From Stomorhina lunata (taxonomy: Eukaryota > Arthropoda > Insecta > Diptera > Rhiniidae), in contig OW121741.1 of the NCBI GenBank assembly GCA_933228675.1, forward strand, positions 59,733,363-59,797,362: a stretch of DNA of 64,000 nucleotides, read 5' to 3'. The number at the start of each line of letters is the position of its first letter. Position 1 is the stretch's first letter. This document shows, one piece after another, positions 31,562 through 51,763 of this stretch. Both the position numbers and the translations under genes were made by a program. The notes below the pieces were generated by a model that searched no databases, was not told the origin of the DNA, and was given only the letters and a program-made list of their open reading frames with translations.

Positions 31562-31931
31562 AGTTATTTTTGGCGGTTGTGAAAAGTAGCGGGTAGGATG
31601 GTGAGAATGAGAAAAGTAGGGTATGTAATGTGTACGATATTTCTGTAATTTTAATTATTGTTTTGTGGTTAACTTGAGGTTTTAAATAGTTGGTTGGTGT
31701 ATGTGTGTGTGTGTATGTTGATGTGCGGTGCACGACTTTATTTGAAATGTATTTTGAGTATATTAAAATGTATTTTTTTCTTTTGCGGTTTTAGCACTTG
31801 CTTCAATGGGGAGAGTATTGTAAGATTTAGTTTAAGAAAAGCGTATGTGTCCGTCTGTCTGAATGTACTAGGTGAACGTTTCTATATGAAAATAGTTCCA
31901 TTAATGAATAAAAATAAGAATTTTATATTTA
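31562..31931 (+). repeat. Left terminal inverted repeat of the Polinton
   Basis: About 370 bp that recur, inverted, at 51,311-51,763 with few differences. Includes a GT-rich run (31,690-31,720). The inner limit is where similarity stops after aagaattttatatt. Short open frames inside are not genes. Confidence 0.93.
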
Positions 31932-31999
31932 TTTTATAATTCATAAAATTGTTTTTTATTAATCTATATACATATATTTATATTAAAAGTTTTAAAATT

Positions 32000-32314
32000 T
32001 TATTTATTAAAGTGACAATTATTACATTTTGAAAGATTATAGAAATTTATAATTTCTCTAGCGCTGTTTTCTGCTATCCTCTCAGCTAGTTCATAGCTAT
32101 AACAATGACAGGTATCGGGTCCAGTTCTAGTGTTTTCATCAGCCCAAACACAGTCTTCCAAATGTTGACCGTGTTTGGTTTTTATTCTTGGTAGTTGTTT
32201 TACAAATTCAAGATATTCTACCTGTGACTGGATTGCTAAAAGTTGTTGTCTATGTTCTTCCGAAACAACACTACAAAATGTTTTTAAAAAGTTAAATATA
32301 TCCTTCAACACCAT
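32000..32314 (-). CDS. Hypothetical Polinton protein, 104 residues
   Basis: Clean ATG-to-stop frame, the leftmost gene of the element, 68 bp inside the TIR. The first half is predicted helical (KDIFNFLKTFCSVVSEEHRQQL). The second half has cysteines and histidines, CHCYSYEL and KCNNCHFNK, that could bind metal. No signal peptide or membrane segment. I do not recognise a family. Its 3' end faces the TIR and its 5' end the gene of the secreted paralogue. Confidence 0.5.
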   Translation of the reverse strand: MVLKDIFNFLKTFCSVVSEEHRQQLLAIQSQVEYLEFVKQLPRIKTKHGQHLEDCVWADENTRTGPDTCHCYSYELAERIAENSAREIINFYNLSKCNNCHFNK

Positions 32315-32329
32315 ATTGATTTATGTGTG

Positions 32330-32937
32330 TTACTGTATACGCATATGTAATGTTTGCGAGTAATCTTTTAAATCGATTGTTCTAATATTTATACTGTTGT
32401 GTGGTGATTCGAATAGTGGACTTGTTATTCCTACTCCTCCTCGTTCTCCTCCTCGTCGTTCTACTCCTCTCCTTTCTTCTTCTTCAATAATGGAATTAAA
32501 TTCGAAACAGTAAATGTTGAGTTTACGATATTGATAGTTACTATAATAACTACATCTTAATCTAACTTCACAATTATCATATTTTAAATTGAAATGCCGA
32601 TAGAATACTGAAGAACTTTCAATGATACCACCTATATTAATTTCTTTTTCCACAAGATCTCTTTTAAAAGCTTCAGTTGCTTCGTTAATAGTAAATGATT
32701 GGATGGAATCGTTGTAACCTTTTGCTTCTCTCACACGAATTCTTAGTTCTGGTGATGGTGGATTATCATTATTCAATTGAATTGATAATTGTACCCTTAC
32801 CCTCAGTGTATTATTAAGATGTTTTAGACGAAAATACTTGTATCACCTTCAAAAGCTGTCGGCTTATAAATAGATTGCTGACAATTACAAAAATGTATAT
32901 AGATAAAAATGATTAGGGATAATACGATTCTTAACAT
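32330..32937 (-). pseudogene. Secreted-protein paralogue, frameshifted
   Basis: An ATG at 32,937 opens a frame with a hydrophobic leader (RIVLSLIIFIYIHF) typical of a signal peptide, ending at TAA 32,824-32,826. The remainder of the protein continues in another frame to 32,330. Its core (about 32,700-32,500) contains NEATEAFKRDLVEKEINIGG and FYRHFNLKYDN and aligns with the neighbouring gene at 33,064-33,705. The C-terminal part adds an E/R/G-rich tail with a RRGGERGG run that the neighbour lacks. One frameshift near 32,830 separates leader and body. Function unknown; secretion is inferred. Confidence 0.65.
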
Positions 32938-33063
32938 TTTTTTTTTTTTTTGATTTTCTTCCTTCAACAATCATCGATAAACTAATGTTTATTTACTTAT
33001 TCGATGCTCATTTTATATGTTTGAGGGTAGTTCTTAAGATTGACAATTTGTATGTCATGTAAT

Positions 33064-33705
33064 TTAATCTGGTATGCGAACTCTTTCAATCTCACCATTA
33101 CTTAAAATTCGTTCTTGTTCAAATTCTCTGTATTCGAAACAGCTTATTTTAAGTTTATGTTTCTCGAATATACTTTCATATGTACAGCGAATAGGTATAT
33201 CAATATTTTCATATTTTAGATTAAAATGTCGATAAAATGGATGTTCAGATTCTAGTATACCGCCAATATTTATTTCTTGATTTATTAGATCTTTACGAAA
33301 AGCTTCGATGGCGTCATCGACTGTAAAATATTTAATTGAAGGATCATCTGTAGTTATAGTGGGTGGGATAAAGGTGGTTGTAGAAGTTGTTGTTGTTGTT
33401 TCATTTATAATATCATCATTCTGAGTATCATAGTCAGCATAATCTATATCTTTTGTTGCTAATTGTTCACTTTCCTTCAACATTAGGAATGAAATATTAA
33501 CTTTTAAAATTTGTTGATTAGGAAGTGTAAAATTGAATTCTATAGTTTTTGAGTTTTCAGTACTGAGGTTGTTATTATTGATGTTGTTGTTGTTAATGTT
33601 CTCAACAATTTTATGGTGAACATCCTCAATTGGTAATGTATTAGCTTTTATTGTATTATATGTTAAGAAGGTAAAAATGTAAAACAAAAGTATAGGAAAT
33701 TCCAT
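33064..33705 (-). CDS. Secreted protein of unknown function, intact
   Basis: Starts at ATG 33,705 (upstream frame lacks ATG) and encodes 213 residues. Residues 1-20 form a hydrophobic signal peptide (FPILLFYIFTFLTYN). Asparagine-rich and Thr-rich low-complexity stretches follow (about 35-50 and 100-115). The C-terminal third carries DAIEAFRKDLINQEINIGG and FYRHFNLKYEN with two later cysteines (IRCTYE and KISCFEY). The tandem paralogue next door shares only this domain, so it is the likely functional unit. Upstream DNA holds two 70-bp repeats with a hairpin. No family known to me. Confidence 0.7.
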   Translation of the reverse strand: MEFPILLFYIFTFLTYNTIKANTLPIEDVHHKIVENINNNNINNNNLSTENSKTIEFNFTLPNQQILKVNISFLMLKESEQLATKDIDYADYDTQNDDIINETTTTTSTTTFIPPTITTDDPSIKYFTVDDAIEAFRKDLINQEINIGGILESEHPFYRHFNLKYENIDIPIRCTYESIFEKHKLKISCFEYREFEQERILSNGEIERVRIPD

Positions 33706-33774
33706 AATTAGCTTTTTTTCTTTTTTCGACAGAGATGTAGTCTTAATCAAACTTAAATACTTAATAGCGAAAGA

Positions 33775-33925
33775 ATTTAGAAAAAAGTTCTTTTATATAC
33801 AATTAAAGAGAGAGAGTTGAAATTTCACAGTCTTGCGAAATCATTAAATACTTAAAAAAGGTCTTTTTATATACAATTAGAGAGAGTTGATATTTCACAG
33901 TCTTGTGAAATCACTAAATACTTAC
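33775..33925. promoter_or_regulatory. Duplicated upstream element with hairpin
   Basis: Two ~70-bp direct copies lie just upstream of the secreted-protein gene. Each contains tttttatatacaatta, an AGAGAG tract and the inverted repeat ATTTCAC-agtctt-GTGAAAT. The position and a TATA-like tatatac suggest a promoter unit; this is inferred from layout only. Confidence 0.45.
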
Positions 33926-34003
33926 ATCGCCTTGATAGATTGTAAAAAAAAAAAGGAATAAAAATATAAATTTTTTCTTTATTTTATTTAATAAAACATT
34001 ACA

Positions 34004-34902
34004 TTATTTTTTTAACTTCATTTGTAAGAGGAATGTACTGAAATATTTTATCATGTATAATTTTAAACAGTATGCAGATGTATTAGCTGGTATAGTCTTA
34101 AGAGTTTTAATCTCAATACGAATATCGATTGGTCCTGTTTTAACCATTTCATTTTGATGAGTTACATCCAAAACTACTAATGGGGCTTCCGTTTTGAATT
34201 TTTCACGTGACAACAATGGTTGGGCCATATGAAAATAGTAGTTTTGTTGAAATTTGTAGTACATGTCATACAATAGAGCAAAACGATTTCTATCAAATTT
34301 AAGATTAAGATCATCATATGGATAAGTTTCAGAATTGAGATGAACTTTTATGTCAGCCAAATCACAATGTATAAATTTGTTATCCCAGCTCCTGAATGGT
34401 ATATTTAACGCTTGACGGTTGTTGATTATTTTAAACATTTGTAGTTTGTAGGCATCAGCAAGTTGAATATGTGGCACTTTCCACGTTATATTTAGAATAG
34501 ACAATTTAATCTTTTCTGTGACATCGGTCGACTTGAAAACTTGATTATCGTCTTTTGCACGTAAAAGGATCAATTCATGTTTAGAGTTGACTATAATCTT
34601 GTTGTAATCTTCTGCAAATCCCAGTAGTTGAGTTCATATCGAATTTCATCGAATATATGTGCCATACAATTGTTTAAGAGTTGAATATTTGATGATATTG
34701 TTGAATCTTCTTTCGTTGCATATCCTTCAATATATAAGAGACTTTCGTGTGGTAGAATGTATAAATCTTGATTTTGAATCGATATACGAATCTCATCGTT
34801 GTTCTTAAATGATTGTAGATATGATGTATAGCTATGGTAGTCTTTTTTGATAATAGAATTATCAATTTGTGGTTTTTGTAAAACATTAATATTATCACTC
34901 AT
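34004..34902 (-). pseudogene. Candidate major capsid protein, decayed
   Basis: The N-terminal part (ATG 34,902 to 34,591) has NNDEIRISIQNQDLYILP and a FDEIRYEL stretch. A second part in another frame (to about 34,004) has KIKLSILNITWKVPHIQ, FRSW, DIKVHLNSETYPYDDLNL and FALLYDMYYKFQQNYY. These fit a family found widely in insect Polinton-like elements that I take to be the double jelly-roll capsid gene. Relative to that family one segment is missing after FDEIRYEL (near 34,600) and another after FRSW (near 34,375). The last codons also change frame near 34,070. Position downstream of the penton candidate supports a structural role. It cannot yield a full capsid protein. Confidence 0.58.
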
Positions 34903-35098
34903 TTTTCAAACGGAATCCTAATTTTTTTAAAAACTCTTGATTGTTTTTGGTTAGCGAATAAGTTTTTTTTGTTGTTGTTGTTGATGATGATTTTTCTCTT
35001 ACTTTCAATGTTGACGATGCAAGACTGAATGATGGTTCATCATTCAAATTGTTTATATATCTGTTGTTATTGTTGTTGTTTTTATTATATATAATCAT
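34895..35098 (-). CDS. Small basic protein between penton and capsid candidates
   Basis: 67 residues from ATG 35,098. Asn-rich start, Ser/Thr/Lys middle, and a C-terminal helix QEFLKKLGFRLKNE. Overlaps the start of the capsid candidate by 8 bp, which is typical of compact virus-like gene blocks. A short basic gene is common at this place in related elements; role unknown. Confidence 0.5.
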   Translation of the reverse strand: MIIYNKNNNNNNRYINNLNDEPSFSLASSTLKVREKSSSTTTTKKTYSLTKNNQEFLKKLGFRLKNE

Positions 35099-35103
35099 TT
35101 CTA

Positions 35104-35794: not shown

Positions 35795-35844
35795 CTTCAC
35801 AATCGACTTGAAATTAAGTTAATTTATAAATTTGCTAATGTTTT

Positions 35845-36813
35845 TCATATAAATGATGATGATGATGATGATGTTGTTGATGTTGATAATGATGAATTGT
35901 TAATCCAAGAGTTATGTTCTGATGAAAATCCCAACCATTTAACGTATAACATATCACCTCTCTTCTTTATAACTTTTTCAATTAGATACGTGTCGGGATA
36001 TTTAGTTTTCATTAGTTCGTAATTATAAAACCCACCTTTAATATCATGACCTTGATAGTCTTGTAGTATATATGTTTTTGGGTTTGTATTTCGTACAGTC
36101 TTAACTTTAAAGATTTCCGTTGTCCAATTTGGTGTGTAACCCTTTTCGAAGACATGTTTATATTTACTTATTCGAACATTGTCGCCAACTTTAAACTTTG
36201 GTCTTTGAAAGACTTTTAATTTGTTGTAGACAGTATTAAATAGTGGTTTCTCATTCGATGAATTTACTTGATTCGGTGTCATCTTAAAAGTTCTATGATA
36301 TGTATTATTATACAAATCTAAAAGATTTTTATATTTATGAATCCATTTGTATGTTCCCTGATAGCTAAACTCCTTCCACATTAGTCCTTTTAATGTTCTA
36401 TTGAAACGTTCAATAATTGATGCTTTTAAGACACTATAGGTTGAATAGTGGTTGATTTGTTTCGATTGCATCAGATGATGAAATTGAGCGTTGAAAAACT
36501 CTTTACCGTCATCAGTTTGTAGATTTTTCGGCTTTCGGTGACTCTCATCAAATATGGTTTTCATAGCGTTTGTAACACTTTGAGCAGTTTTATTTTTTAC
36601 AGCAAGGGCCCAAGCCTTCTTCGAAAATGTGTCTATTACAGTTAAGAGATAGCGATATCCATTGTTGTAAGTAGCGTAACTACCCATTTCTACTAAATCT
36701 GCTTGCCATAAATCATCAATTCCCTTTACGATAACTCTTCTTCTTTTAAAATTTTTTCTCGCCTGTCTATGCAACTCATTAACAATATCTCTTTTGTCGA
36801 CATTTAAATTCAT
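35845..36813 (-). CDS. Polinton integrase with chromodomain
   Basis: Intact 322-residue frame. The retroviral-type catalytic core has D39 (LWQADLVEM), D101 (LQTDDGKEF) and E135 (ASIIERFNRT), the DD(34)E arrangement. Then follows an SH3-like segment (FKVGDNVRISKYKHVFEKG) and a C-terminal chromodomain (about 275-310, LIEKVIKKRGDMLYVKWLGF and HNSWI). The enzyme would join element ends to chromosomal DNA in the nucleus, with the chromodomain steering it to histone marks. The tail is Ser/Thr repeats. A preceding ~103-bp duplication has created the first codons, so the ancestral N-terminus may differ. Confidence 0.93.
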   Translation of the reverse strand: MNLNVDKRDIVNELHRQARKNFKRRRVIVKGIDDLWQADLVEMGSYATYNNGYRYLLTVIDTFSKKAWALAVKNKTAQSVTNAMKTIFDESHRKPKNLQTDDGKEFFNAQFHHLMQSKQINHYSTYSVLKASIIERFNRTLKGLMWKEFSYQGTYKWIHKYKNLLDLYNNTYHRTFKMTPNQVNSSNEKPLFNTVYNKLKVFQRPKFKVGDNVRISKYKHVFEKGYTPNWTTEIFKVKTVRNTNPKTYILQDYQGHDIKGGFYNYELMKTKYPDTYLIEKVIKKRGDMLYVKWLGFSSEHNSWINNSSLSTSTTSSSSSSFI

Positions 36814-36990
36814 ATTTTTTTTTTTTTAAAGTTAGACCTTTCAACAATATTATTATTATAAAGATAATCTTCAATGTTGTCTATTCGTCTCTTTTGTCAA
36901 CATTTAAATTCAGAACTTTTTTTTAAAAGTTTAGACCTTTCAACATCAACAATATTATTATAAAGATAATCTTCAATGTTGTCTATTCTT
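36786..36990. repeat. ~103-bp tandem duplication at the integrase/fibre junction
   Basis: Two adjacent copies contain cttttgtcgacatttaaattc (with a/g change), agacctttcaacaatatta and taaagataatcttcaatgtt. The right copy lies in the 3' end of the fibre-like gene, the left copy in the integrase leader. It explains why the first integrase codons mirror the fibre gene end on the same strand. Confidence 0.8.
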
Positions 36991-37796
36991 TGACCTATTG
37001 CGACCCACTTGAAAATGTACTCTTCGACTTTGTTAAATCTCTCATCAACTTTAGTTGTAAATGCTTTGTTCGAATTTAGAGTATATTTTTTAACAATTTC
37101 TTCAATTGTTTTCTCTTGTTTACTTATATGATTTTGTACAGCTTTGTTAATCACGTCTATATTCGTATAAATCTTTTCTAGATTGTTGTTCAGTGTTCTA
37201 CTTGTATCAATTTTCAACTGTTTAATATCAGTTGTATGTGAAATATTTATATTTTTTATATCATTGTCTAGATGATTAAGTTTTTCAATATCATTTTTAT
37301 GTTTAACCTTTATATCTTCTATTTCCGTGAGCAACTTTGTCGAACTACTTTTAATATTTTTAACATCACTATAAACGTTTTGTAGATTAATTTTTAGTGA
37401 AGTATTTATTTCATGTTTAATCTCTTTCATATCATTTGTGTGAGTATAATTTAGGCTATTAATTTTTTCATCAATCACTTTTATATCATTTGTATGTGTA
37501 TTATTTAGATTATTAATTTTTTCAACAATCTGTTTTATATCGTTTGTATGAGTATTAGTTATGTCACTAATTTTATTAGTTAGATATGCTTTGGTAACAG
37601 CATCTTTAGAGTTAACAGGTGATAAGAGATTGCTGATTCTTTTCTTGCGAACATCTAAACATTGATTATCTACAGTAATATCGAACACCTTTAATAGTTC
37701 TATATGTAATTTCCTATCATCATCATCATTAACTTTAACATCAGTTGTTCTTGGTCGTTTATTCAAAATTTCTCCAAATTTGTTAATATAACTCAT
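36897..37796 (-). CDS. Fibre-like coiled-coil protein
   Basis: Intact, 299 residues from ATG 37,796. After a short N-terminal domain, residues about 58-75 read LSPVNSKDAVTKAYLTNKI; a DAVxKxYL motif heading a coiled coil is familiar from trimeric phage and virus fibres. Three to four imperfect repeats of about 17 residues follow (NNTHTNDIKQIVEKIN and variants, 80-130), then a long heptad-rich region to about 280. The gene sits between integrase and the DUF8207-like gene in a structural block. An attachment spike is my inference; another coiled-coil scaffold role is possible. Confidence 0.6.
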   Translation of the reverse strand: MSYINKFGEILNKRPRTTDVKVNDDDDRKLHIELLKVFDITVDNQCLDVRKKRISNLLSPVNSKDAVTKAYLTNKISDITNTHTNDIKQIVEKINNLNNTHTNDIKVIDEKINSLNYTHTNDMKEIKHEINTSLKINLQNVYSDVKNIKSSSTKLLTEIEDIKVKHKNDIEKLNHLDNDIKNINISHTTDIKQLKIDTSRTLNNNLEKIYTNIDVINKAVQNHISKQEKTIEEIVKKYTLNSNKAFTTKVDERFNKVEEYIFKWVAIGQRIDNIEDYLYNNIVDVERSKLLKKSSEFKC

Positions 37797-37850
37797 TTTC
37801 TTTCTTAGTGTTTTTCTTTTGTTAATGTGTGTGTGTGTGTGTGTGTATGT

Positions 37851-39309
37851 TTAATAAATTATATTAGCCTCCTTTAGTTCTTCAACAATAGAAATTATTT
37901 CGTTTTTATGATTGTTGTGGCCGACACCTTCTGATGAAAGAAGTAAACGTAGTCTGTTTACTAATTCATTAGGATTATCCCAATATATATAGTTTGGTTT
38001 GCTACCGTCTACAGATTTTAGTAATAATCCACTACCCTCTGTCAGAACATTATTCTTTTTTTTAAATAATTTTTTTATAACACGTTGATACTTAAATGCT
38101 TTTGTACCTTTAATTTGTTTATTTGGTTGATAGTTGCGTTTGTGTACATTCGTAGTTACTATAATACTTTTATATTTCTCCAAATCGGTTTTAGTGTAAT
38201 GTAAAGGTTTAGAATGGAATAATAATTCAAATAATCCTGGTGTCACGTTAATCTTTATATCTCCTATATTTAACACATTATCACTACGAAATTTTAATTT
38301 ATTAGTTCCATAACGCCAATCCCCACTTTGATATATATTAAATCCATAGATTTTATCTAACATTTTATTCGCCATTAATAATTTTATATTTTCTATCAAT
38401 GATGATGATGATTTATTATTGTTATTATTTTCGCTTAATTTAATTCTTTTCTTATCAGTATTCAATTGTGTTTTACTCTTTCGTTTTGAGAAAATATGCA
38501 TTGTTTTATTTCGCTTTTTATCATCTTCATCGAAATTGCTCAACAAAGAGGTATTCTTTCGTTTTTTGATTTTCTCCTTTTTTAACGTTACTGGTTTGTT
38601 TATGTTATCTCTATCAGTTTCATGATTATTCGATAACAAATGTGAGGAACTTGAAGGCAACATAGATAATGATGATTGAATTCCTTTTTTACGTTTATAA
38701 TTTATGCTTGAATCGTAAGTTGTCATTGATGATCTATTCCTTTTAAGATTTTTTTCCACTTCTTTAGCATTCTCAAAACTCATATTAAAATCAGAATCAT
38801 TCTGAGATTGTTTATTATGTTGTTATTGATGATGGAGACCAACGGGACTACCAATATCAAATGATAATGAATGTGGTTTACTTTGAAATGAATGTATAGA
38901 GTTTGAACGAGTTTCCTTTTTTGGTGTTGAAGTTACTAACATATGGTTTTTTGAATTGAAGAAGTTGGACATGTTTTCACTAGCTTCATCATCATCATCA
39001 TCATCATTATTATAATCCATATCGTTATTTATACCGATGAAATCAGTTTTGTCATAACTATCATCATAATCCATTGCACTATCCGATGATGATAATGAAG
39101 ATGATGATGGTTTCACTTTTTTATTGTTTAATTCAAGTGCTTTTACATTATCAAGTTTACTTATTATATTTTTTAGTGGTTTTGTTATAGGTTGAAAGGT
39201 ATCCTCCAACATATTAAATGTATCGATTTCATTTAATTTTATTTTTTTTTAGTTTTTCTTTTAATACCGTTCTAGTATTTATAAGTTCTTTCATTAGTTT
39301 TTTATTCAT
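37851..39309 (-). pseudogene. DUF8207-like virus-element protein, interrupted
   Basis: Reads from ATG 39,309 to 37,851, about 486 codons in all. An early frame change lies at an A9 run (about 39,243). Then come a TFQPITKPLKNII helix, an Asp/Ser-rich acidic segment (39,120-38,970), an in-frame TAA at 38,823-38,825, a Lys/Arg/Ser-rich linker and a conserved C-terminal domain with MLDKIYGFNIYQSGDW, VTPGLFELLFHSKP and DLEKYKSIIVTTNVH. That domain resembles one annotated as DUF8207 in insect elements; I recall it but could not check. Function unknown; charged linkers suggest nucleic acid or virion interior contact. Confidence 0.55.
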
Positions 39310-39489: not shown

Positions 39490-40176
39490 TTACAATTGAA
39501 TAAAATTATCAAAACCCTTTCTATAACGGCCTTTGATAACTGAATCATCCTTACTTATGACCAGAAAACCATATTTGTCTCTCCAACATTCACTACAAAT
39601 TTTTTTAAATTCATTAAATGACATATCACCGATAACATGATCATTGTAGATATGACGTAAATTCATTTCATCTTGTTTAAATACAACAATCATATTTGCA
39701 TTGTCACGAATCAAATGTTTAGGAATTTTCGCGTATGTTTGACACAAGTAGAAACAATCTATATTTTTATGTCTGCCCATGCAAAAGTAATCTCTTATGG
39801 TGTTTTGTTTACCGCAAATTACATCATCGAATATTATTATAGAATGTTGTTTCGCTTTCTCTGGACTCAAAACTTTTTCGTTTTCCGAAAAAGTAAATAG
39901 TTTTATGCCTTTAATTGACTCAATCAATCTCTTCAGATAACAATATTTTGGTTGATATAACGACTTTGAATATATGTATATGTTTTTAAAACAAAGACCG
40001 TTAGGACTCTCTATAAGACTTAACATAACATTAGTCTTGTCACAATATGACGGTCCTACAATTAATGCTCGTATTGAATTGGGTAGTAGAGTACTATGTC
40101 GTGTTTTACATTTTTTTTCCTGTTCACTATCAGCATTTCTAATTATTATTTTTTAATCTTGTTTAATTAAACGCAT
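39490..40176 (-). pseudogene. A32/FtsK-like genome-packaging ATPase, damaged
   Basis: Frame from ATG 40,176 is cut at once by TAA 40,153-40,155, then stays open to 39,490. The P-loop region reads LIVGPSYCDKTNVM, where the usual GxxxxGK(T/S) has aspartate for the last glycine. Walker B is HSIIIFDDVICG, followed by the sensor-like GRHKNIDCFYLCQTYAKIP and a conserved RDNANMIVVF. Size (about 229 codons) fits Polinton packaging ATPases, which pump DNA into capsids. Both the stop and the P-loop change argue against activity. The divergent promoter gap to the PLA2 gene is about 90 bp. Confidence 0.85.
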
Positions 40177-40265
40177 TTTGACGACTAATGACTGAATCGA
40201 AATACAAAAACTATCTTATATACCGTATAAAACATGTACTTTTCCTAGTTATACCTTAATTGTAT

Positions 40266-41204
40266 ATGGTTTGCAGACTAAGAATGGTAATAATTTATTG
40301 TAAAAACAAAAATAGACATCAGTCTATAACAGGAAGTGGTTTGGTAAACACACTAATAAACCAATTACCCTTTGAATTACATTTACCTGGATATCAGTTT
40401 TGTGGACCTGGTACAAAACTTAAAGAACGTCTAGCAAGAGGAGATAAGGGAATAAATTTATTAGGCTCTGCATGCAGAGATCACGATATTGCATACTCGC
40501 AATCAAAAGATTTAAGTGAAAGACATAAAGCTGATCAAATATTAGCTAAAAAAGCTTGGCAACGTGTAAAAGCTAAAGATAGTAATTTTAATGAACGAGT
40601 GAATGCTTGGTTTGTTACGAACGCAATGAAAGCAAAAGTTAAATTTTGATTAGGTATGAAGCAAACATCACAAACTAAAAGACGTAAATCGAAGAAAAAT
40701 GCTAAATTTGGATTAGGTATGAAGTAAACATCACGAACTAAAAGATGTAAATCGAAGAAAAATGGCAAGAGAAAGAGTCGAAAGACATGTAATAAGAAAT
40801 TATTTTCGAGCACCGTTAAGAATACACTGAAACTTTTGAAGAAAGAAAATCCTAACAATATATACGATGCTGTTAAAATTGCAAAAAAAGCTGTTAACAC
40901 AAATTTCAGGGGTAAAAGGAGATCTAATATAAGTGTACCAAGAGTGATTCCATTACCAAAAGTTGGAGGTTTTCTCCCATTAGTTCCTGTCTTGACAGCA
41001 CTATCTGCATTGGGCAGCTTAGCTACAGGTGGATCAGCTATAGTGAAAGCTATAAATAGCATTAAAGATGGAAAGGAACAACTATCAGAAGCTACTCGTC
41101 ACAATAGACATATGGAAGCAATTGCTATGGGAAAAGGTCTCTTTCTAAAACCTTATAAGACTGGTTACGGATTGTACTATAGTCCATATTCAAAAAACTT
41201 TTAA
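40266..41204 (+). pseudogene. Phospholipase A2 and membrane-active minor virion protein, interrupted
   Basis: From ATG 40,266 (40,284 also possible). A parvovirus VP1-type PLA2 covers about residues 30-95: calcium loop YQFCGPGT and catalytic HD in ACRDHDIAYS. A Lys/Arg-rich linker contains a 21-codon tandem duplication (63 bp, copies starting 40,641 and 40,704). TGA at 40,647-40,649 and TAA at 40,725-40,727 interrupt an otherwise unbroken frame. The C-terminal part has a hydrophobic GGFLPLVPVLTALSALGSLA segment and GKGLFLKPYKTGYGLYYSPY. Such proteins breach endosomal membranes during entry. The next gene, the protease, begins in an overlapping frame. Confidence 0.87.
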
Positions 41205-41648: not shown

Positions 41649-44600
41649 TTATAGTCTACATATATCAATATTAAGAAGCATATCATTATCATCATCATCA
41701 TCTTTTTCCGATTGTAACAATATTGATGGATAATTTATTTTACAATGTCCCCATGCATAGGTTTCAATGCCATTTTCTTTTATAAATCGCTTATCATCTA
41801 AATAGCTTAATGTTAACTTACTTATATGTTGCGTATAAATTTGATGTATTTTAGATCTAAATATATACATGGAGTCATAATACAATTTTTTCTCTTGCAA
41901 ACATTTTCTAAAGTCATCAATTGATAATTTAGCTGTTACACATTGCTTAATACCTTTAATTTTTTTTTATTTCTTTATCATCTCTATCAATTTTAATCGA
42001 ATACATTTTTGCTCTCAATCCAATGAATTCCTTAATCACTTTACCGTTACACTCATCTTTCATCATTCCCAATACTTTTTTATTTACCAGCGGTATATTA
42101 TAAATATTATCCTTTGGATATGCAGATGTATCGAAATGCTTAGTAATATCATTTCGAATATCATCATAAAAGTCATTTGTTCTGATTTCATATATAAATG
42201 AATCTGTATCCATATAATTTAGATTTATGTTATCAAGATATTTAGGTTTCATATATTCATAATGAAAACTATACATTTTCAATTTTGATAACTCTAGAAC
42301 ACAAAACCCAATATATATCGGTTTATTATATATTGTTTTTACCCTTTTCATTTCGATTGCCACCATATTTTCATTAATTTGAAGAGCACTATGAAAGTTT
42401 GGTTTAGCTACAAGAGACCTAGCACTCCCACTCACAAACTATTTTGATATCCTTTCTCTTATCAACATTTTCCATTGTCTTACCATATACTGCATTATTA
42501 AGCAATTTAAAAAAGTTTTGTTCAAAGGAATTTTTTGATAAAGTTCTATGATAATTGTTTAAATCAATGTATTTTTTTAACCAATCCGATTGATTAAATT
42601 CAAGAATTCTATGATTTTTTTTTAAATCATTCCATGATGAAGACACTGCTGAAGATTACGATAATGTATTACATAGTTTGTTTTATTATTAAGGTCCGCT
42701 ATCAATTTTTTATTTTTCATAATTTCAATTTTTTTATTGTCTACACAAAATGGTAAGTCATTATGGTAATCATGTAATGTGTTTGGATATTTTAAATCTA
42801 CTTCTAATATATACCCTATTGATGAATCTTCGTCTACATTACTAAGATTGAAATTTTCAATGTTTTCCATCCATTTAAAGTTTTTGTAAGGAAGATATTG
42901 CGACATTGCATAGCCATATAAATTATTTATATCTAAATATATTAAATAGTTTGATTCCTTAGTGGAGTCATAATCACTAATATATTTATTGTTTGCAATA
43001 GAATGACGTTTAGCACATTGTACAATACCTCCTCTAATTCCTCGTACAATAAAGTTGTACATGTCAATATCAGTTAATAACTCTAACTGTATATTTGTTG
43101 TTTTCAACATAGCATCCCAAGACAGACCGGGTATTGTATAATATTGACACGGATCTAGGTTGTAAATATTTTTACAAACTTTACGAAAATTTTCAAAAAC
43201 ATCAGCTAACAAAAGAACATCTACTTTTAGATATAAAAGTAGGTAATCGTTTAACGTTCTACACTGAAATTTATTCCAAATCTTTTCAGCAAATTCATAT
43301 TGATCAACACTACATGATACATTAGTGAGTTTATTAAAGAAGACTGAACGAGGTGGTAATTGATTCTCTTTAAGACGATTTAATGAATCTATATAATCAT
43401 AAGGAAAAACGCCTTTGCGTTTCATTAAATCGAACTCATCCACATTGTTATAAAATGACCTTACAAGTTTTAAATCATCATGACATGAATCGAAATGAAT
43501 CGAGAAAACGTAATTCAATAGTATGATTGTCATTTATTGAAATTTTCTTAGATATTGATATATATAATTCTTTATTTAAAGGAATTATATTTATATCACC
43601 TTCAATAGTTGAAAGTTCTCTTACAAATAAATGACAATCATATGCAGAAAAATTATGAAAAAATATTGGAATGAAATTAGCAATCTGATATTCTAAATTA
43701 CAATTGCTATGGGCAGGACCTCTATATTCACCCGTTAAATGACAATGATCTGCCACTCGATTGTGAAAATCTAAATTTTTTCCAAGGAATTCATTGGTTT
43801 CTTTTTACTTAAATAATTATTATAAATATCTAAAGTATCATCTACTAAGCTCTTAAAGAAATGCTTTGACGCATCATTACCACTATATATTCTAAACTTA
43901 TCTAAACTAGAGTTATACGAACACTTAATATAATAACTATACGCATAAGGTGTATGTTTCTGCACCGAAACTACATTTTTATTTCGTATACTCACTGGCT
44001 CCAGTATGCACTCGAAATCAGCGTATACTACAAATGGTACATCCATTTGTTTTTTTAAATTCTTATAGTGTAACGAATTGTTCTCTAAGGTAGGCATTGT
44101 TGTTACCATCCTGTTACATTCCTTCTTATGTTTTATTAGCGATGATTCATTATGGAAATGAATTAAACATGTATTACATATATGCACTTTTTTATGTGCT
44201 TTTGTTAGTTGGCTTCTAATTAATCTGTAGAAGAAAAAAGTATATATTTTTTAGTATATATATTTTTAGTATATTTTTATTTTTTCTTCTTAAAAATTAT
44301 GAAAAATAGAAAAGAAAAACATACCTTGAAACATTTTTGATGTAGACATAGTGAAATTTATCAGCATCTTCTATTAGCAACAAGTTGATGTGAGTTTCCT
44401 TCTCCGACTGGGTGAAATAGTATGGACCAATTACAGTAGTATTTTCCAGGCCAAATACGTTTATGCTAATATCTGGATTATTTATTTTGAAATCTTTAAT
44501 TTTGTTCACCGGCAGTGGAAAATATAAATTTTCAAAATTCAAAACTCTCCCACTTTCCAATCTTATGATATCATCACTAATATTTATAATTTTGTAAGCT

Positions 44601-45456
44601 GTACATCTATTTGAGTATTCAGATGCAACGGGATATAGGGCTGATATTATTGCCCACTTGAAACAATAATTATCATTATTTTTTACATTGATGCATGCTC
44701 TCCTGCTGACAATTGCATGAGGTAAAGGTAAATAATGTGAACCTTTAAGGCACTCGTATTTATTTACATTAATCTCAAGATGAGAGATTTCTGTAAGAGT
44801 CCATCCACTATCACGTTCTTGAAACTCACTCATCTTTGTCACTAAATCCTCGCATTGATTAGTAAAACATTGCTCGATGTCTGTATTTGTTTGTGCAGAA
44901 TTTATTATAATCATTTTTGTTTGATGTGATTTTATATCTGTAGTAGAAAAATCATCATCATCTTTTAACAACACATATTCGCAAAACAGTTCGCAATTAA
45001 ATTTAACGTTTAAATGTTTTTGTAATAGTACCTTTAATAAGGTAACTACTTTCGGTTTAATTTCACTTCAAAAAATTTCCGGTATTAAGTTCCTTTTATG
45101 TTCATTCTCAATTAAATATGACGCGATTCGATTTTTGAAACAAGAGTTTATTGATTGTATACCATTCTCTAATTGTTTAGTACTTTTGTTTTTATGGGCA
45201 TTTGTTCTTACATGATAATGCCAAAGTGTTTTTAAAATTTTAAAATTTTTTCGCATACATTACAAAAGACACTATCACTTTCCGCATGTTCTACTAAATT
45301 TAAATGTTTTTTCAAGTCTTGATTTGTTGAAAAATTTAAATTACACCGTGAATAAAGTGACGATGAAGGGCCATCGTGATTTAATCTTACATGTCTTCTT
45401 AAGGAAGAACTAAGTTTAAAATTTTTTTTATATATTTCACACACGAAGTTTGCCAT
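41649..45456 (-). pseudogene. Protein-primed family B DNA polymerase with one intron, broken
   Basis: Begins at ATG 45,456 with zinc-finger-like C/H motifs (SLRRHVRLNH, DLKKHLNLVEH, FCNVCEK), then KWAIISALYPV region, exonuclease motifs (YADFEC ~44,019; HNFSAYDCH ~43,660; YLKVDVLLLADVF ~43,210), a DHCHLTGEYRGPAH motif, motif A DINNLYGYAM (~42,933), motif [11 protein letters not shown] (~42,499) and motif C YMDTDS (~42,210). A 100-nt intron lies at 44,225-44,324. Frame changes occur near 45,245, 43,772, 43,485, 42,630, 42,425 and 41,950, and an in-frame TGA at 45,068-45,070. The enzyme replicates Polintons from a terminal protein. Some changes are in A-runs; as sequenced the gene is dead. Confidence 0.95.
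44225..44324 (-). other. Spliceosomal intron inside the polymerase gene
   Basis: Donor GTATGT at 44,324 and acceptor TTTTTTCTTCTACAG ending at 44,225, with an AT-rich interior. The exons meet in the serine-arginine codons of NVSR and continue LIRSQLTKAHKK in frame, matching the family without a gap, whereas the unspliced reading hits stops. Confidence 0.88.
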
Positions 45457-45779
45457 TTTTTCTTTTTGGTTTTTTTTCTGATAAAGACCTGTTCCGTTTT
45501 AAATGAATACTTGAAATGTTTTAATTGTATGCATACAATAGTATTTATACCTATTATGTATTTAATAAAATATTTGTGTAACAAGAATTGTAAATATACT
45601 TACATATATATATATATATATTGTATAACATTTAGTATAGTTTTTAAAAAATTATTTTATTAGAAATTCTAAAAAACCACAAATAAAAAATTATTTAAGT
45701 ATAGTTATAAAAAAAATTTATTTTATTTATTAATTTTTTTCAAAAAATTACATTATAATAATTTTATAATATGAAAAAA
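45457..45779. other. AT-rich spacer in the Polinton
   Basis: Contains a TA dinucleotide run (45,605-45,623). It separates the polymerase gene from the next minus-strand gene and may hold the polymerase promoter; no specific motif is convincing. Confidence 0.4.
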
Positions 45780-46151
45780 TTATCTTAATGCAACACTTTT
45801 ATGATCTAATATATTATAGTATATAGGTGGTATAAGAGTATCGTCCCAGCAACCACCATCCACTTGAATATAGCTGTCCTCTTCAGCATCATATTTTGAC
45901 AGCTCCCTGTCTCCGTCATGGTACTCAAACAAGTACGTTGTTTGATTAATAGTCATTTTGTTGTTCCCATAGTTATAGGGAAAAGCCACCTGTTGTGGCA
46001 CATCTACCGCGTAACATAGGTAGTTGTCTTCGTTAATACGAGTCACCAATTTAATGTCAAAAAATACACGATTATTTAGGATAAAGTGTAACTCTTTTAA
46101 AAGTTTTTTATATAAATTTAAATATTCAAGAGGATTACTAATGTTTGCCAT
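45780..46151 (-). CDS. Hypothetical Polinton protein, 123 residues
   Basis: Clean ATG-to-stop frame upstream of the polymerase gene. Acidic, mixed alpha/beta in appearance: helical start (NPLEYLNLYKKLLKELHFIL), then FFDIKLVTRINEDNYLCYAV and an acidic DGDRELSKYDAEEDSY stretch. No signal peptide or known motif. A weakly similar FDI-x8-DD pattern occurs in the broken gene at 49,293-49,599, but I cannot claim homology. Confidence 0.5.
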   Translation of the reverse strand: MANISNPLEYLNLYKKLLKELHFILNNRVFFDIKLVTRINEDNYLCYAVDVPQQVAFPYNYGNNKMTINQTTYLFEYHDGDRELSKYDAEEDSYIQVDGGCWDDTLIPPIYYNILDHKSVALR

Positions 46152-46264
46152 TATGTTTACTCTTAATAATTTTTAACCGAACTATGATTTATTATTATCG
46201 ACAGAAGATTTTTATAGCAAACATTTTTTAAACCAACATTATAAGAATCTAAACTATATATGTA

Positions 46265-46622
46265 CAGGGTGGCCCAGAAAGACCGAAGTGGTGTGAATTG
46301 CTTATAACTTTTTATTTAAGAGATATTTTTTTAATTTTTGTTTTTAAATACTCGAAAATTTGCAACCAGACGGTTTATTGTTGACTGAGAGGGTGCAACC
46401 CGCACATTAAATTGACGACGGTATGCACGCTGAGTCAACACAATGGACCGTTGATTTGAAAAGTAAATTTCAACAATTTGGGCACGTTGTTCAATTGTGT
46501 ATTGCTCCATTATAAATTATCCAAGTCTTCTTTACAAAATACTGAAAAGAAAAGAAAAAAAAAAATTATAATAAAAAAGTTATAAGGAATTCACACCACT
46601 TCGGTCTTTCTGGGCCACCCTG
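46265..46622 (-). mobile_element. 358-bp mariner-type MITE carrying a transposase N-terminus
   Basis: Perfect inverted ends CAGGGTGGCCCAGAAAGACC extend to about 36 bp, flanked by TA (46,263-46,264 and 46,623-46,624). On the minus strand, ATG at 46,510 opens a frame for the helix-turn-helix start of a mariner-family transposase (EQYTIEQRAQIVEIYF, INRLVANF); the catalytic part is deleted. It is inserted within the Polinton and so is younger. Confidence 0.9.
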
Positions 46623-46629
46623 TATATAT

Positions 46630-46922
46630 ATTTACATTAATTGTAAGACCATAAACAAATTTATATGTATACGAGGAAATTATTAAGGAACTTAAATACA
46701 TTGTATTAGTTTCTTGTTAGGCTTTTTTTTTATTAATTGTAGAAACTGCAACCAAATTTAAATCATAAGAATTCAAACTATTTTTTTGCATTAATTGTAA
46801 ACCCAGCAAAAAATTTGAAATGTATGTGGAGAAATTTTAAAAAACTAAAATACGTTGTATTAGTTTCTTGTGGGGTTTTTTTTTTATTAAATCATAATAA
46901 TCTAAACTATTTTTTTTCCAAT

Positions 46923-46980
<58 letters not shown>

Positions 46981-49240
46981 TATATTCTTAAACGAGCAAT
47001 AATTGTTCATATATATATATATATAGAATGGCTATCTCGAAAACGGCTCTAACGATTTTGATAAAATTTGGACAGTGGGTATCTTTTTTGATGTATAGGT
47101 CGAAGAAGAAGGGACTTTTGGAACTTTTACCTCTAAGAGGGTAAAAACGGGTAAAAAGGGGAAAAAATCGAAAACGCTATGTCTCCTAAAGTAATAGGTA
47201 TAGAAACAAAATTAAAATTACGTTTTAAACAGCTTTGAAAATAAGCGGACAGGTGTTTGGTACTTTTTTGAAACTATGTCCGATAGGGGGTAAAAAAGGG
47301 TGAAAATAGTTTTTTTTGCACCTTTTTAACCCACTCTTATATTTTAAACTAAAGAATATAGAAAGAAACTTGGTACTGCAATCAATAGATGTAAAAAAAA
47401 CATGAAACACGTATTTGGTACTTTTTTGATTTTGGAGCCAAAATGGGTAAAAAAGGGATAAAATGATAACTTAACATCTCCAAAGTAATATGAATAGGAA
47501 CATTATACATTATGTTAAATGCGTTTTAAAAAATGTACCGAATTCAATTGGCACCAAAAAAGTACCAAATATACATATGGAACTTTTAGAAATTAGGGAA
47601 TAAAAAGGGGGAAAAATTAGTATTATTTTAAACAAATGAATGTTTGTCTGTATGTATGTTCTTTATAGAATAGTAAACTGTGAATTTGATTGTGTTATGC
47701 TCTTTAGCGAAGATGTTGCGGATAAGCCGGCGAAGGTTTTAAAGTTGATAAGACTAATTTCCGACAGATGGCGCCACTGAAAATTACTAAAAATTAATTA
47801 AATCCTAAACTGTACATTTGATCATGCTATGATCTTTAGCAAAGTTGTAGCGCATGAGCCGACGAAGGCTTTTTAGTTGGTATGAATAATTTCCGACAGG
47901 TGGCGCTACAGAAACTTACTCAAAGTCAATTTAATCGTAATCTGTACATTTAATCATGCTACAATCTTTAGCAAAGTTGTTGCACATGAGCCGACGAAGG
48001 TTTCTTAGTTGGTATGAAGAAATTTCGACAGGTGGCGCTACTGAAATTTACTCAAAGTCAATTTAATCGTATGCTGTACATTTAATCATGCTATAATCTT
48101 CAGCAAAGTTGTTACGGATAAGCCGAAGAAGGTTTATGAATTGGAATAAGCAAAGTCAGACAGTTGGCGCAACAGAAAACTACTCAAAATGAATTAAATC
48201 GTAAACTGTGCATTTGATCAGACTATAATCTTTAGCAAAGTTGTTGCGCATGAGTCGACAGAGGTTTCTGTTGATATGAATAATTTCCAAAATTATTCAA
48301 AATGAGTTAAACTGTAAACTATGCAAACTATGTGTTGGTCGGACAAAATAAATCAAATAATTCAAAATTAACTGAATATTTCTACAATGTCTTTCCTCTA
48401 AATTTATTTTAGCACTTTATAATATAAAATATATAAAAACTTTTAAATTTTCCTCAAAATGCTTATCATAAGCTCCGAGCAAGGCTCGGTCTACCAGGTA
48501 CTATATATATTAATTATATAACTTAAAAAAATCTAAGTGCATATGAGGGAATTTTAAAGAATGTTGTGGGTTTTTTCTTTAAAATACAATGCTTTATTTT
48601 TAATTTTTTATGATAATGTAATATTTGCGATAATAGTTATTTAAAAATTTAAAGAACTTAAATACGTTGTATTAGTTTCTTGTTGGTTTTTTTTTTATTT
48701 AAAATAATAATCTAAACTATTTTTTGCATTAATTGTAAAAAACGCAAACAATTTTAAATGCATATGGAGAAATTTTAAAGAACTTAAATACATTGTATTA
48801 GTTTCTTGTTGAGCTTTTTTTTTTTTTATTAATTGTAGAAACCGCAAACAAATTTAAATCATAAGAATTCAAACTATTTTTTACATTAATTGTAAAACCA
48901 GTAAAAAATTTGTAATGCACGTGGGGAAATTTTAAAAAACTTAAATTCAGATTAGTTGTATTAGTTTCTTGTTAGGGTTTTTTTTATTAAAGTCATAATA
49001 ATCTAAACTATTTTTTTCTAATACAAATATATATATAAATATATATGTATAAATATATATGTATAAATATATACAAATATATATATTACATTAATTGTAT
49101 AACTTAAAAAAATCTAAGTGCATATGAGGGAATTTTAAAGAATGTTGTGGCTTTTTTCTTTTAATTACAATGTTTCATTTGTTAATTTTTTATGATAATG
49201 TAATATTTGCGATAATATTTATTTAAAAAAGTGGTATAAA
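46630..49240. repeat. Dispersed ~130-150 bp repeats in the Polinton right third
   Basis: Five copies of a unit containing tgtattagtttcttgtt and an aacttaaata lead lie near 46,705, 46,857, 48,670, 48,796 and 48,957. A second unit, taacttaaaaaaatctaagt...gataatgtaatatttgcgata, occurs at 48,520-48,650 and 49,095-49,230. The Helitron-like element at 47.0-48.5 kb is embedded among them. Some could be relics of repeated leader sequences of lost genes. A TA microsatellite lies at 46,927-46,978. Confidence 0.75.
47025..48507 (+). mobile_element. Helitron/Helentron-like non-autonomous element with central tandem repeats
   Basis: Starts near gaatggctatctcgaaaacgg. Five copies of a 132-bp unit run from 47,675 to about 48,330 (start points 47,675, 47,807, 47,939, 48,071, 48,203; shared ctttagcaaagttgttgc). 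The 3' end has a perfect hairpin CCGAGC-AAG-GCTCGG at 48,475-48,489 followed by tctaccaggtactat. Central tandem repeats plus a 3' hairpin recall DINE-TR1-type elements. No transposase. Boundaries approximate. Confidence 0.5.
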
Positions 49241-49292
49241 TACTTTTTAACATTTAATTAGAAATTTATAAGTTTTTATTTCTTTAATAAAC

Positions 49293-49599
49293 ATGGAGGG
49301 ATTTCGTCTAAACAGAATCAACGCGATTTATTAATTCGGGACTTGCAAAGGATGTTTAAAAAAATTGTGGGTTATAATATCTATTTTGATATAGATTTTA
49401 ACCTACAAAAAATGGATGACCATACTTCGTATTACGATGTCAAGATATCGAATTTTGGGATAAGGAGCCTATAAAAATTGAAAAGCAAGAGTTCGAGGTA
49501 TTTATTCATGAGGGATACGCAACTCTTACTAAAAAAATTGACGATGGTTACGTTAGCCTGGAAACATGGATAATAAGTGAACTGCCATCGGAATATTAA
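49293..49599 (+). pseudogene. Broken small Polinton gene
   Basis: ATG at about 49,290 is followed by frame changes near 49,330, 49,360 and 49,450. Coherent pieces are KKIVGYNIYFDIDFNLQKMD and a longer one ending ETWIISELPSEY at TAA about 49,597-49,599. Roughly 100 codons in total, followed by an AT-rich repeated leader that also precedes the next gene. Family unknown. Confidence 0.45.
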
Positions 49600-49955
49600 A
49601 GAATTAAAATATTTATGTATTAATTGTATAATATTTTTCTATTACTTAATAAAAAACCTAAGAATATTAAAGAACTAAAATATTTGTATATTAATTGTAG
49701 AATATTTTTGTATTAATTAATAAAAAATCTAAATAAATATGGTGAAATTCAAAAGAACAAAAGTATTTTTCACTGAAAATTTTCACTATAAATTGTCGGA
49801 TAACAAGAGTAATAACATCAGTTCGATCTTAAAGCTTGTTAGCTAAAGTAGTTGAAAAAAGCAATAAAAAATAATTTAAAAAAGAATACGTTGAATTTTA
49901 TTAATAATATTGGTGAAAAAAAAAATTTAAAAAAAGTACACTAACCTTGAAAGAA
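49600..49955. other. AT-rich leader region
   Basis: Two direct copies of taattgtataatatttttctatta with taataaaaaacctaa (49,618-49,740). Probably the upstream region of the next plus-strand gene; no defined promoter motif. Confidence 0.4.
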
Positions 49956-50177
49956 ATGCCGATAAATGAAGCGTTTAAAATCTTAAAGTGTGAACGCAAA
50001 ATTACAACCTTTGGTGCTAGAACTATGCTGGAGTTGGAAGAACATGTAATTTTTCTTCCAGAAAAATATAGTTTCCTCCCCGACGAAGTCATGACGGATT
50101 TATCATCAGGACATTTTAATGTAAAGAGGATTCCAAACGGAACTTATTATAAATTTATATTTGAAATAAATAATTAA
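49956..50177 (+). CDS. Small OB-fold-like protein, candidate ssDNA-binding
   Basis: 73 residues from ATG 49,956 (the TTG upstream is not a likely start). Pattern of five short strands: ERKITTFGARTMLELEEHVI, FLPEKYSFLPDEVMTDL, HFNVKRIP and YYKFIFEI. Similar small proteins accompany insect Polinton-like elements, and an OB-fold role in single-strand binding is my guess. Intact frame, first of three small plus-strand genes at the right end. Confidence 0.5.
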   Translation: MPINEAFKILKCERKITTFGARTMLELEEHVIFLPEKYSFLPDEVMTDLSSGHFNVKRIPNGTYYKFIFEINN

Positions 50178-50285
50178 AAACAAAATCTATGTATATATTT
50201 TTATTAAAAAAATTAAATAAAAGTAAAAGCTATAAAAACTATAAAAAAATAATTATGCGTTTTTAATGTCAGTTGTATAAGAACA

Positions 50286-50825
50286 ATGAATTCGAATAGA
50301 TTCATAGTAATTGATGTTCAAGGATTTGTTATTGCTAATAAATTATTTGCTAAAGAAGTTTGCATTTTACACAATGTCAATGATGATTTTAAAACTAAAA
50401 CTTTTCTAATAAAATCTCCCTACAAATTCTCTGACCTAACAAATAAAGAAAAGAGGACAAATAAATGGTTATATTGGAATTTACATGGTCTAAGTTGGAA
50501 TGATGGTAACTCTACCCTTAAAGATGTAATCGAATACTTAACATTAATTATTGAAAACGAAAAATGTTCTATATGTTAAAGGATCTGAAAAAGAAAAATG
50601 GTTACAAGAACTATTTAGAACAACAGAACAGAAAATATGTATATTTAATTTAACCTCTTCTGAAAATATAACTTATATAAAAATAATTCACACATAAATA
50701 TTTGTAATTATCATAAGCAAAACATAATTAATAATTCATATCTGTGTGCTGAAAAGAGTGTTATTTTAATTCGGAATTATATTTCTTTATGTTTAGTTGA
50801 AGAAAAACTTGATGAACTCTTTTAA
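50286..50825 (+). pseudogene. Exonuclease-like (DEDD/RNase H fold?) accessory protein, frameshifted
   Basis: Starts at ATG 50,286 with FIVIDVQGF, an exonuclease-I-like pattern in which the second acidic residue is glutamine, then KEVCILHNVNDDF and WLYWNLHGLSWNDG. A frame change near 50,565 leads to a VLYVKGSEKEKWLQELF segment, and another near 50,697 leads to the last part ending at TAA about 50,823-50,825. Total about 178 codons. I recognise the family from insect elements but do not know its function; the nuclease link is weak. Confidence 0.5.
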
Positions 50826-50922
50826 CTTTTTTTAATAATTAGTTGTTAATTATTCACCATACGGATAGCAGTAAAATATTTATATACGGATAACTTCAAA
50901 TCAATAAAAGAAAATTAAAAAA

Positions 50923-51213
50923 ATGATGACATCTGAAGAACTAAAGGAATTTTTAAATAAATATAATGATAAAATAGATTATAATCATTTAAATATATTT
51001 CTTAAAATGATTAATGAATTGCGAATGTATAACAACATTAGTACACCATTTATATATTTTAATAATAACATTCACAAATATGATTGTGAAAATATTCAAA
51101 CAAAATCTTTTAATATATGTGCATGTCAATCATATTATGATCAATATATGTATACACTAAAACTTTATAAATTATATAAACGTATTTTTAATTTTTCTCC
51201 AAAAGAAAATTAA
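50923..51213 (+). CDS. Hypothetical Polinton protein, 96 residues
   Basis: Intact frame with start ATG 50,923 (ATG-ATG). Mostly helical, Asn/Tyr-rich, two cysteines in NICACQSYYDQYMYTLKLY. No known motif. Last gene before the right TIR. Confidence 0.5.
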   Translation: MMTSEELKEFLNKYNDKIDYNHLNIFLKMINELRMYNNISTPFIYFNNNIHKYDCENIQTKSFNICACQSYYDQYMYTLKLYKLYKRIFNFSPKEN

Positions 51214-51310
51214 ATTAAAGATAACATAATTGTAATTTTATTTCTTAAGATTTTTTTATATATTTGTATTTAACAAACATACAAAATAAAACCTAAAACA
51301 TACAAATCAA

Positions 51311-51763
51311 TATAAAATTCTTATTTTTATTCATTAATGGAAATATTTTCATATAGAAATGTTCACCTAGTACATTCAGACAGACGGACATAAATAAAAA
51401 ATTCTTATTTTTTATTCATTAATGGAACTATTTTCATATAGAAACGTTTACCTAGTACATTCAGACAGACGGACACATACGCTTTTCTTAAACTAAATCT
51501 TTCAATACTCTCCCCATTGAAGCAAGTGCTAAAACCGCAAAAGAAAAAAATACATTTTAATATACTCAAAATACATTTCAAATAAAGTCGTGCACCGCAC
51601 ATCAACATACACACACACACACATACACCAACCAACTATTTAAAACCACAAGTTAACCACAAAACAATAATTAAAATTACAGAAATATCGTACACATTAC
51701 ATACCCTACTTTTCTCATTCTCACCATCCTACCCGCTACTTTTCACAACCGCCAAAAATAACT
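51311..51763 (-). repeat. Right terminal inverted repeat of the Polinton
   Basis: Inverted match to the left TIR, longer by about 83 bp because the inner segment with catatagaaa and acattcagacagacggaca is present twice (51,330-51,391 and 51,412-51,472). Ends CCGCCAAAAATAACT at 51,763. Confidence 0.93.

What the first reader, a model, noticed from the sequence alone, without database searches (positions are those of the whole stretch)
31562..51763. 20-kb Polinton/adintovirus-like element with a complete virion and replication gene set
Seen: AG...CT terminal inverted repeats and recognisable polymerase B, integrase, packaging ATPase, PLA2, adenain-like protease and capsid-region genes in one unit. 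Known: Polintons and adintoviruses carry this kit. Inference: an integrated virus that once made particles in a fly lineage.
Basis: partly seen in the sequence, partly recalled or inferred. Interest (0 to 1): 0.92.

Follow-up and report, generated by a model that had tools for sequence, protein, structure and literature searches.

The report
Decayed fly Polinton (virus-like giant transposon)
This is a 20-kb Polinton/Maverick, a virus-like giant transposon, probably sitting in a fly genome; its kind is well known and this copy is damaged, but beside its capsid genes it carries a conserved pair of genes for probably secreted proteins whose job is unknown.

Summary
The observation largely holds. 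AG...CT terminal inverted repeats lie exactly at 31562-31932 and 51390-51763 (367 matches, 4 mismatches, 2 gaps). Between them: an intact integrase with chromodomain, a double-jelly-roll capsid gene, a packaging ATPase, PLA2, a weakly matched protease and a DNA polymerase B (PolB) in six pieces. Integrase and PolB each have thousands of database relatives. In a 35-row tree PolB pairs with tsetse (99/84), in a 10-row group with all five named flies of that tree. So it is an insect-type Polinton/Maverick, a known kind; the same core set is published for Spodoptera. 'Complete' is too strong: PolB has five frame breaks, the capsid gene lacks about 58 residues and changes frame, the penton-like gene appears broken, the ATPase Walker A is atypical, and no target-site duplication was found. 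About 5 kb of the right arm is non-coding repeats with a nested mini-transposon. Least explained is a tandem pair of secreted-looking genes beside the capsid gene, with relatives in tsetse and blowfly and no Pfam domain. The host genome could not be searched.

The parts
31562..31932 (+). left terminal inverted repeat (371 bp)
   Evidence: 98.1% to right TIR
51390..51763 (-). right terminal inverted repeat (374 bp); its inner 85 bp is tandemly duplicated at 51306-51389
32000..32320 (-). small ORF, unknown
   Evidence: only a sub-cut-off Pfam match
32330..32842 (-). second member of the secreted-type pair (paralogue of the next gene, 56% over 70 aa); no signal-like start in this open frame
33064..33792 (-). 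secreted-type protein: signal-like start, Thr-rich linker, conserved domain with two Cys; ends earlier at the C-terminus than most aligned relatives
   Evidence: 30 relatives incl. Glossina and Lucilia; alignment
34004..34905 (-). major capsid protein (DJR-like, PF21738), in two frames, about 58 residues absent relative to tsetse relative P0028
35104..35818 (-). penton-like minor capsid gene by position and recall (identity not confirmed), apparently in two frames
35845..36825 (-). integrase (rve) with C-terminal chromodomain, intact ORF, catalytic D, D, E present (roles recalled)
36897..37850 (-). ORF with 54-bp tandem repeats, function unknown
37851..38822 (-). ORF, unknown
38823..39248 (-). 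acidic, low-complexity ORF, unknown
39490..40152 (-). A32-like packaging ATPase; Walker A reads GPSYCDKT, not GxxxxGK[ST]
40260..40649 (+). parvovirus-like phospholipase A2 domain, Ca-loop and His-Asp motif present (motif roles recalled)
40728..41204 (+). ORF after PLA2, adenovirus pX-like by recall only; a 63-bp tandem duplication at 40640-40764 lies across the break from PLA2
41183..41560 (+). adenain-like cysteine protease, weak matches only
41649..44250 (-). DNA polymerase B in six overlapping open pieces (five frame breaks), with an Endonuclease VII-like PF02945 piece at 43478-43804
44297..45067 (-). N-terminal part of PolB (matches 7 of 120 listed PolB relatives); OTU-like by recall only
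45235..45498 (-). C2H2 zinc-finger-like piece, below Pfam's cut-off
   Evidence: PF00096 3.4e-4
45780..46172 (-). ORF, unknown
46256..46631 (.). nested mini-transposon: about 65-87 bp inverted repeats around a DUF4817 helix-turn-helix piece (46334-46516, -)
46631..51305 (.). non-coding right arm: direct repeats of about 360 bp (46631-46986 / 48723-49087, 85%), 132-bp tandem array (47669-48288), 71-bp tandem pair
29724..31563 (.). 31-bp satellite array abutting the left TIR (flank, not element)

Best explanation
A Polinton/Maverick of the insect type, integrated in what is most likely a fly genome, and now damaged. When its lineage was active the integrase-chromodomain protein inserted the linear DNA, a protein-primed PolB copied it from its terminal inverted repeats, and capsid protein, penton, ATPase, protease and the PLA2 protein built a particle whose PLA2 would open a membrane during entry. 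Shown here: TIRs, gene families, frame breaks, relationship to fly elements. Inferred from the named families: protein priming, particle formation, entry role of PLA2; inferred from nearest relatives: fly host.
For: TIRs. Pfam matches for integrase plus chromodomain, DJR capsid, A32 ATPase, PLA2, Endonuclease VII piece and PolB piece. Integrase: 6,787 relatives at E up to 1e-3 among 7,170 candidates, best 87% identical; the only organism-named one of the 120 listed is a Glossina fuscipes protein whose gene model joins integrase and DJR capsid parts. PolB piece: 7,428 relatives of 7,992 scored, best by E-value a Glossina morsitans 'DNA-directed DNA polymerase', 76% over 80% of the query; the six PolB pieces lie in order on those relatives. 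Tree of 35 rows. The same ATP, INT+chromodomain, PLA2, PRO and POLB+Endonuclease VII set is published for Spodoptera Mavericks (PMC5803895, part 1 of section 11 and passages).
Against: No 4-8 bp target-site duplication at the borders. Protease match is weak. Penton not confirmed: PDB search gave only unrelated weak rows and the fold model was poor. No relatives found in IMG/VR in three scans. Further copies in the genome not tested: the genome search did not complete (10 tries).
Confidence: 0.93

Rival explanations
1. A recently integrated, still competent adintovirus whose frame breaks are mostly assembly indel errors.
For: TIRs differ by only 4 substitutions but 2 indel events, a high indel share. 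The six PolB pieces follow each other with short overlaps, so frame changes alone, without in-frame stops, can account for the five breaks. Integrase and PLA2 motifs are intact.
Against: About 58 capsid residues present in tsetse protein P0028 are absent, with the two capsid pieces adjacent in the DNA; the ATPase Walker A is atypical and the protease frame lacks an early ATG; only 2 of 7 break zones contain a homopolymer run of 6 or more, in or within 6 bases of the overlap, against a baseline of 13% per 31 bp.
Confidence: 0.07
2. A defective copy moved in trans: genes were already broken when this copy inserted, which would explain near-identical TIRs beside broken genes.
For: 98% TIR identity beside five PolB frame breaks plus breaks in the capsid and penton-like genes.
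Against: The TIR indel rate (2 events in about 742 bp) is enough by itself to account for the number of frame breaks after insertion (my arithmetic).
Confidence: 0.2
3. Not one element but two unrelated TEs side by side.
For: Right arm 46.2-51.3 kb is non-coding repeats unlike the rest.
Against: Outer TIRs match each other at 98% and enclose the whole unit.
Confidence: 0.03

Closest known systems
Spodoptera frugiperda Maverick 1 and 2 (PMC5803895; part 1 of 2 of section 11 and passages seen)
   Same: A32-like ATPase, rve integrase with chromodomain, PLA2-bearing 'CAP', adenain-like protease, PolB with Endonuclease VII domain, several small unknown ORFs
   Different: There the eight small ORFs are in tandem on one strand; here PLA2, the next ORF and the protease are on the opposite strand between PolB and ATPase. 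Ours is broken in several genes
Drosophila-associated adintoviruses 1-3 (PMC8363768; section 3.7 and passages seen)
   Same: PolB, integrase, capsid, protease, FtsK-type ATPase reported for no. 1; fly-associated
   Different: 13.3-14.6 kb contigs; ours is 20.2 kb of which about 14.2 kb (32.0-46.2 kb) carries genes; sequence comparison with them was not done here. Their authors think other hosts possible, above all for no. 3
Glossina (tsetse) proteins P0028, P0130, P0123, P0151
   Same: 76% identity to integrase (P0028) and PolB (P0151); capsid sequence next to the secreted-type domain (P0130); two secreted-type domains in tandem (P0123)
   Different: Known here only as database proteins (gene models); their elements were not examined
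Adintoviruses as defined in PMC11071296 (passages seen)
   Same: Integrase with C-terminal chromodomain; adenovirus-like gene kit
   Different: OTU-like N-terminal domain of PolB and hexon relationship not shown here

Membership tests
Polinton/Maverick | terminal inverted repeats around a giant element (15-30 kb as stated in a passage of PMC8504770) | tested here: met
   20.2 kb, 371/374-bp TIRs
Polinton/Maverick | family B DNA polymerase | tested here: met
   reading frame broken
Polinton/Maverick | retrovirus-like integrase | tested here: met
Polinton/Maverick | A32/FtsK-type packaging ATPase | tested here: met
   PF04665 2e-7, above its cut-off
Polinton/Maverick | adenovirus-like protease | tested here: inconclusive
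   weak matches only
Polinton/Maverick | double jelly-roll major capsid protein | tested here: met
   PF21738 4.7e-71
Polinton/Maverick | single jelly-roll penton | tested here: inconclusive
   position and recall only; searches gave nothing usable
Polinton/Maverick | short target-site duplication (6 bp, recalled; a mark of an undisturbed insertion rather than part of the gene-kit definition) | tested here: not met
   no 4-8 bp match at the borders; left border abuts a satellite array
Adintovirus (PMC11071296) | PolB with N-terminal OTU-like domain | tested here: inconclusive
   44297-45067 is PolB N-terminal sequence but has no Pfam or PDB match; OTU resemblance recalled
Adintovirus (PMC11071296) | hexon recognisable by BLASTp against adintovirus hexons | not tested
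   no reference hexons at hand
Adintovirus (PMC11071296) | integrase with C-terminal chromodomain | tested here: met
   PF00385 6e-4, below Pfam's cut-off; 6 of the 120 listed relatives carry PF00385

The most novel reading that the evidence does not exclude
Fly Polintons carry a dedicated, duplicated module next to the capsid gene that makes secreted glycoprotein-like proteins (signal peptide, Thr-rich stalk, one conserved domain with two cysteines, no membrane anchor) of a fold not yet recognised, used at the host surface or against host defences, as a non-particle, extracellular arm of these elements.
Probability: 0.25. Interest if true: 0.5.

Novelty: new member of a known kind. Interest (0 to 1): 0.27.

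Why it matters
It adds a well-bounded dipteran-type Polinton with both TIRs and shows PolB of five named flies grouping apart from those of ants and other Hymenoptera, beetles, butterflies and arachnids in one tree of hand-picked rows. The conserved secreted-type gene pair is a concrete lead on how such elements might meet their hosts. Otherwise it is ordinary: Polintons are common in insects and this copy is damaged.
Full report
What was claimed and what is there. Both outer ends are exact: 31562 and 51763. The two terminal repeats (371 and 374 bp) align with 367 matches, 4 mismatches and 2 gap events of 3 columns. An 85-bp inner part of the right repeat is duplicated in tandem. No 4-8 bp duplication lies at the two borders. 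The left border abuts a 31-bp satellite array (29724-31563) and the right border C-rich DNA that does not resemble it, so the original target site is not visible.

Genes. On the minus strand, reading from right to left: an unknown ORF (46172-45780), a zinc-finger piece, the N-terminal part of PolB, PolB itself, then (after a plus-strand block) ATPase, three ORFs of unknown function, integrase, a penton-like gene, the capsid gene, two related secreted-type genes and a small ORF. On the plus strand, between PolB and ATPase: PLA2, a following ORF and the protease-like ORF. Pfam matches: DJR capsid 4.7e-71, rve integrase 1e-14 with chromodomain 6e-4, PLA2 1.2e-12, Pox_A32 ATPase 2e-7, Endonuclease VII 1.6e-3, PolB PF03175 7.4e-5 on a 78-residue piece; the chromodomain, Endonuclease VII and PolB matches lie below Pfam's curated cut-offs. 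A profile of 20 integrases (the query plus 19 of the 120 listed relatives) matches 23 distinct PDB sequences, 22 of them named integrase or Pol. PLA2 matches the N-terminal part of capsid proteins in the PDB, weakly (E 0.047; parvovirus by recall), with the calcium-loop and His-Asp motifs present (motif roles recalled). The protease rests on weak matches and on neighbourhood; the penton on position and recall.

Relatives. The integrase has 6,787 relatives at E up to 1e-3 among 7,170 candidates; the best is 87% identical. The only organism-named one of the 120 listed is a Glossina fuscipes protein whose gene model joins integrase and DJR capsid parts, which puts the two genes side by side in tsetse. 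A 303-residue PolB piece has 7,428 relatives among 7,992 scored (a capped set); the best by E-value is from Glossina morsitans, 76% over 80% of the query. A tree of that piece with 34 hand-picked hits of the 120 listed gives a 10-row group with 100/99 support that holds the window, the five named flies (Glossina, three Drosophila species, Haematobia) and four unnamed rows; the other 25 rows, ants and other Hymenoptera, beetles, butterflies, spiders and a scorpion, lie outside; the window pairs with Glossina at 99/84. The root was drawn at the midpoint, so this is a split rather than a rooted clade.

Condition. PolB is open only in six pieces with five frame breaks in overlaps of 8 to 53 bp. 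That the six are one gene was checked against the 120 listed relatives: each piece hits 4 to 120 of them, and wherever two neighbouring pieces hit the same relative they lie in order (5 of 5, 45 of 45, 79 of 79, 32 of 32, 3 of 3); the piece 44300-45067 hits 7 and the zinc-finger piece none. The capsid gene consists of two adjacent pieces in different frames; against tsetse protein P0028 they match residues 259-345 and 404-483, so about 58 residues are absent. The penton-like gene appears to change frame. The ATPase Walker A reads GPSYCDKT rather than GxxxxGK[ST] (motif recalled). The protease frame has its first ATG at residue 35 of 125, and has Lys where S273R has Asn in the pairwise alignment (whether that position is catalytic is recalled, not tested). 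The integrase is intact with D39, D101 and E135. Two of seven break zones, taken with 6 bases on either side, contain a homopolymer of 6 or more, against a baseline of 0.128 per 31 bp, so homopolymer errors do not explain most breaks, though assembly errors are not excluded. Two indels and four substitutions in about 742 bp of TIR are enough, by simple scaling, to yield the observed number of breaks after insertion, so no earlier damage need be assumed.

Right arm. From 46.2 to 51.3 kb no element gene was recognised. There is a nested mini-transposon (46256-46631) with 64-87-bp inverted repeats around a DUF4817 piece, direct repeats of about 360 bp 2.1 kb apart, and a 132-bp tandem array. The gene-bearing part is thus about 14.2 kb, close to the 13.3-14.6 kb reported for Drosophila-associated adintoviruses (PMC8363768, section 3.7 and passages).

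Secreted-type pair. The gene at 33064-33792 has 30 relatives at E up to 1 among 155 candidates, including proteins of four Glossina species at 57-62% identity over 77% of the query (G. brevipalpis, G. austeni, G. fuscipes, G. pallidipes), a G. morsitans protein (56% over 68%) and a Lucilia cuprina protein (63% over 30%); the rest are mostly unnamed. The gene at 32330-32842 is a paralogue (56% over 70 residues). In P0130 (G. morsitans) the domain follows capsid sequence, and P0123 (G. brevipalpis) has two such domains in tandem, so the arrangement is seen in tsetse gene models too. The alignment has 30 rows: 28 of the 30 relatives (P0130 and P0150 left out) and the two window pieces. By a simple hydropathy rule 23 of the 30 have a signal-like start, 7 do not (the window's second gene among them), and none has a membrane-like segment later. 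Fold prediction of P0121 was of low confidence and matched nothing convincingly.

Comparison with what is known. Spodoptera Mavericks carry the same ATP, INT with chromodomain, PLA2, PRO and PolB with Endonuclease VII set (PMC5803895, part 1 of section 11 and passages). Capsid and penton genes in Polintons were described in 2014 (PMC4028283, abstract and passages). PLA2 in such elements is therefore not new. The gene order here, with PLA2 to protease inverted, differs from the Spodoptera description. A search for papers holding both 'Glossina' and 'Polinton' listed five; I saw passages of two (PMC8363768, PMC8504770), and those passages do not describe tsetse Polinton genes. This is not proof that the pair is undescribed.

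Verdict. A real, well-bounded, damaged insect Polinton of known kind. Interest is low to moderate, mainly for the conserved secreted-type pair.

Noticed in passing
15600-22660 (+): A decayed LTR retrotransposon: aspartic protease, reverse transcriptase with RNase H, and H2C2/rve integrase pieces.
   Followed up: no
26588-27679 (-): A DDE_Tnp_4 transposase (PIF/Harbinger type by recall) in two pieces.
   Followed up: no
10903-11971 and 29724-31563: Two sets of A+T-rich, partly palindromic 29- and 31-bp satellites with similar-looking units; the second ends at the Polinton's left TIR.
   Followed up: partly
24429-24875 (-): A PH-domain ORF (PF00169 1.5e-7), possibly a host exon.
   Followed up: no
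46256-46631: Mini-transposon with a DUF4817 helix-turn-helix piece nested in the right arm.
   Followed up: partly
PolB relatives, tree: A PolB named as from the bee Lasioglossum baleicum (P0185) falls inside the ant rows, which could mean transfer between hosts or contamination.
   Followed up: no
1172-1258, 55709-55779, 60807-60889, 63853-64000: Repeated GGAC/GACA-type and ACAT microsatellites.
   Followed up: no
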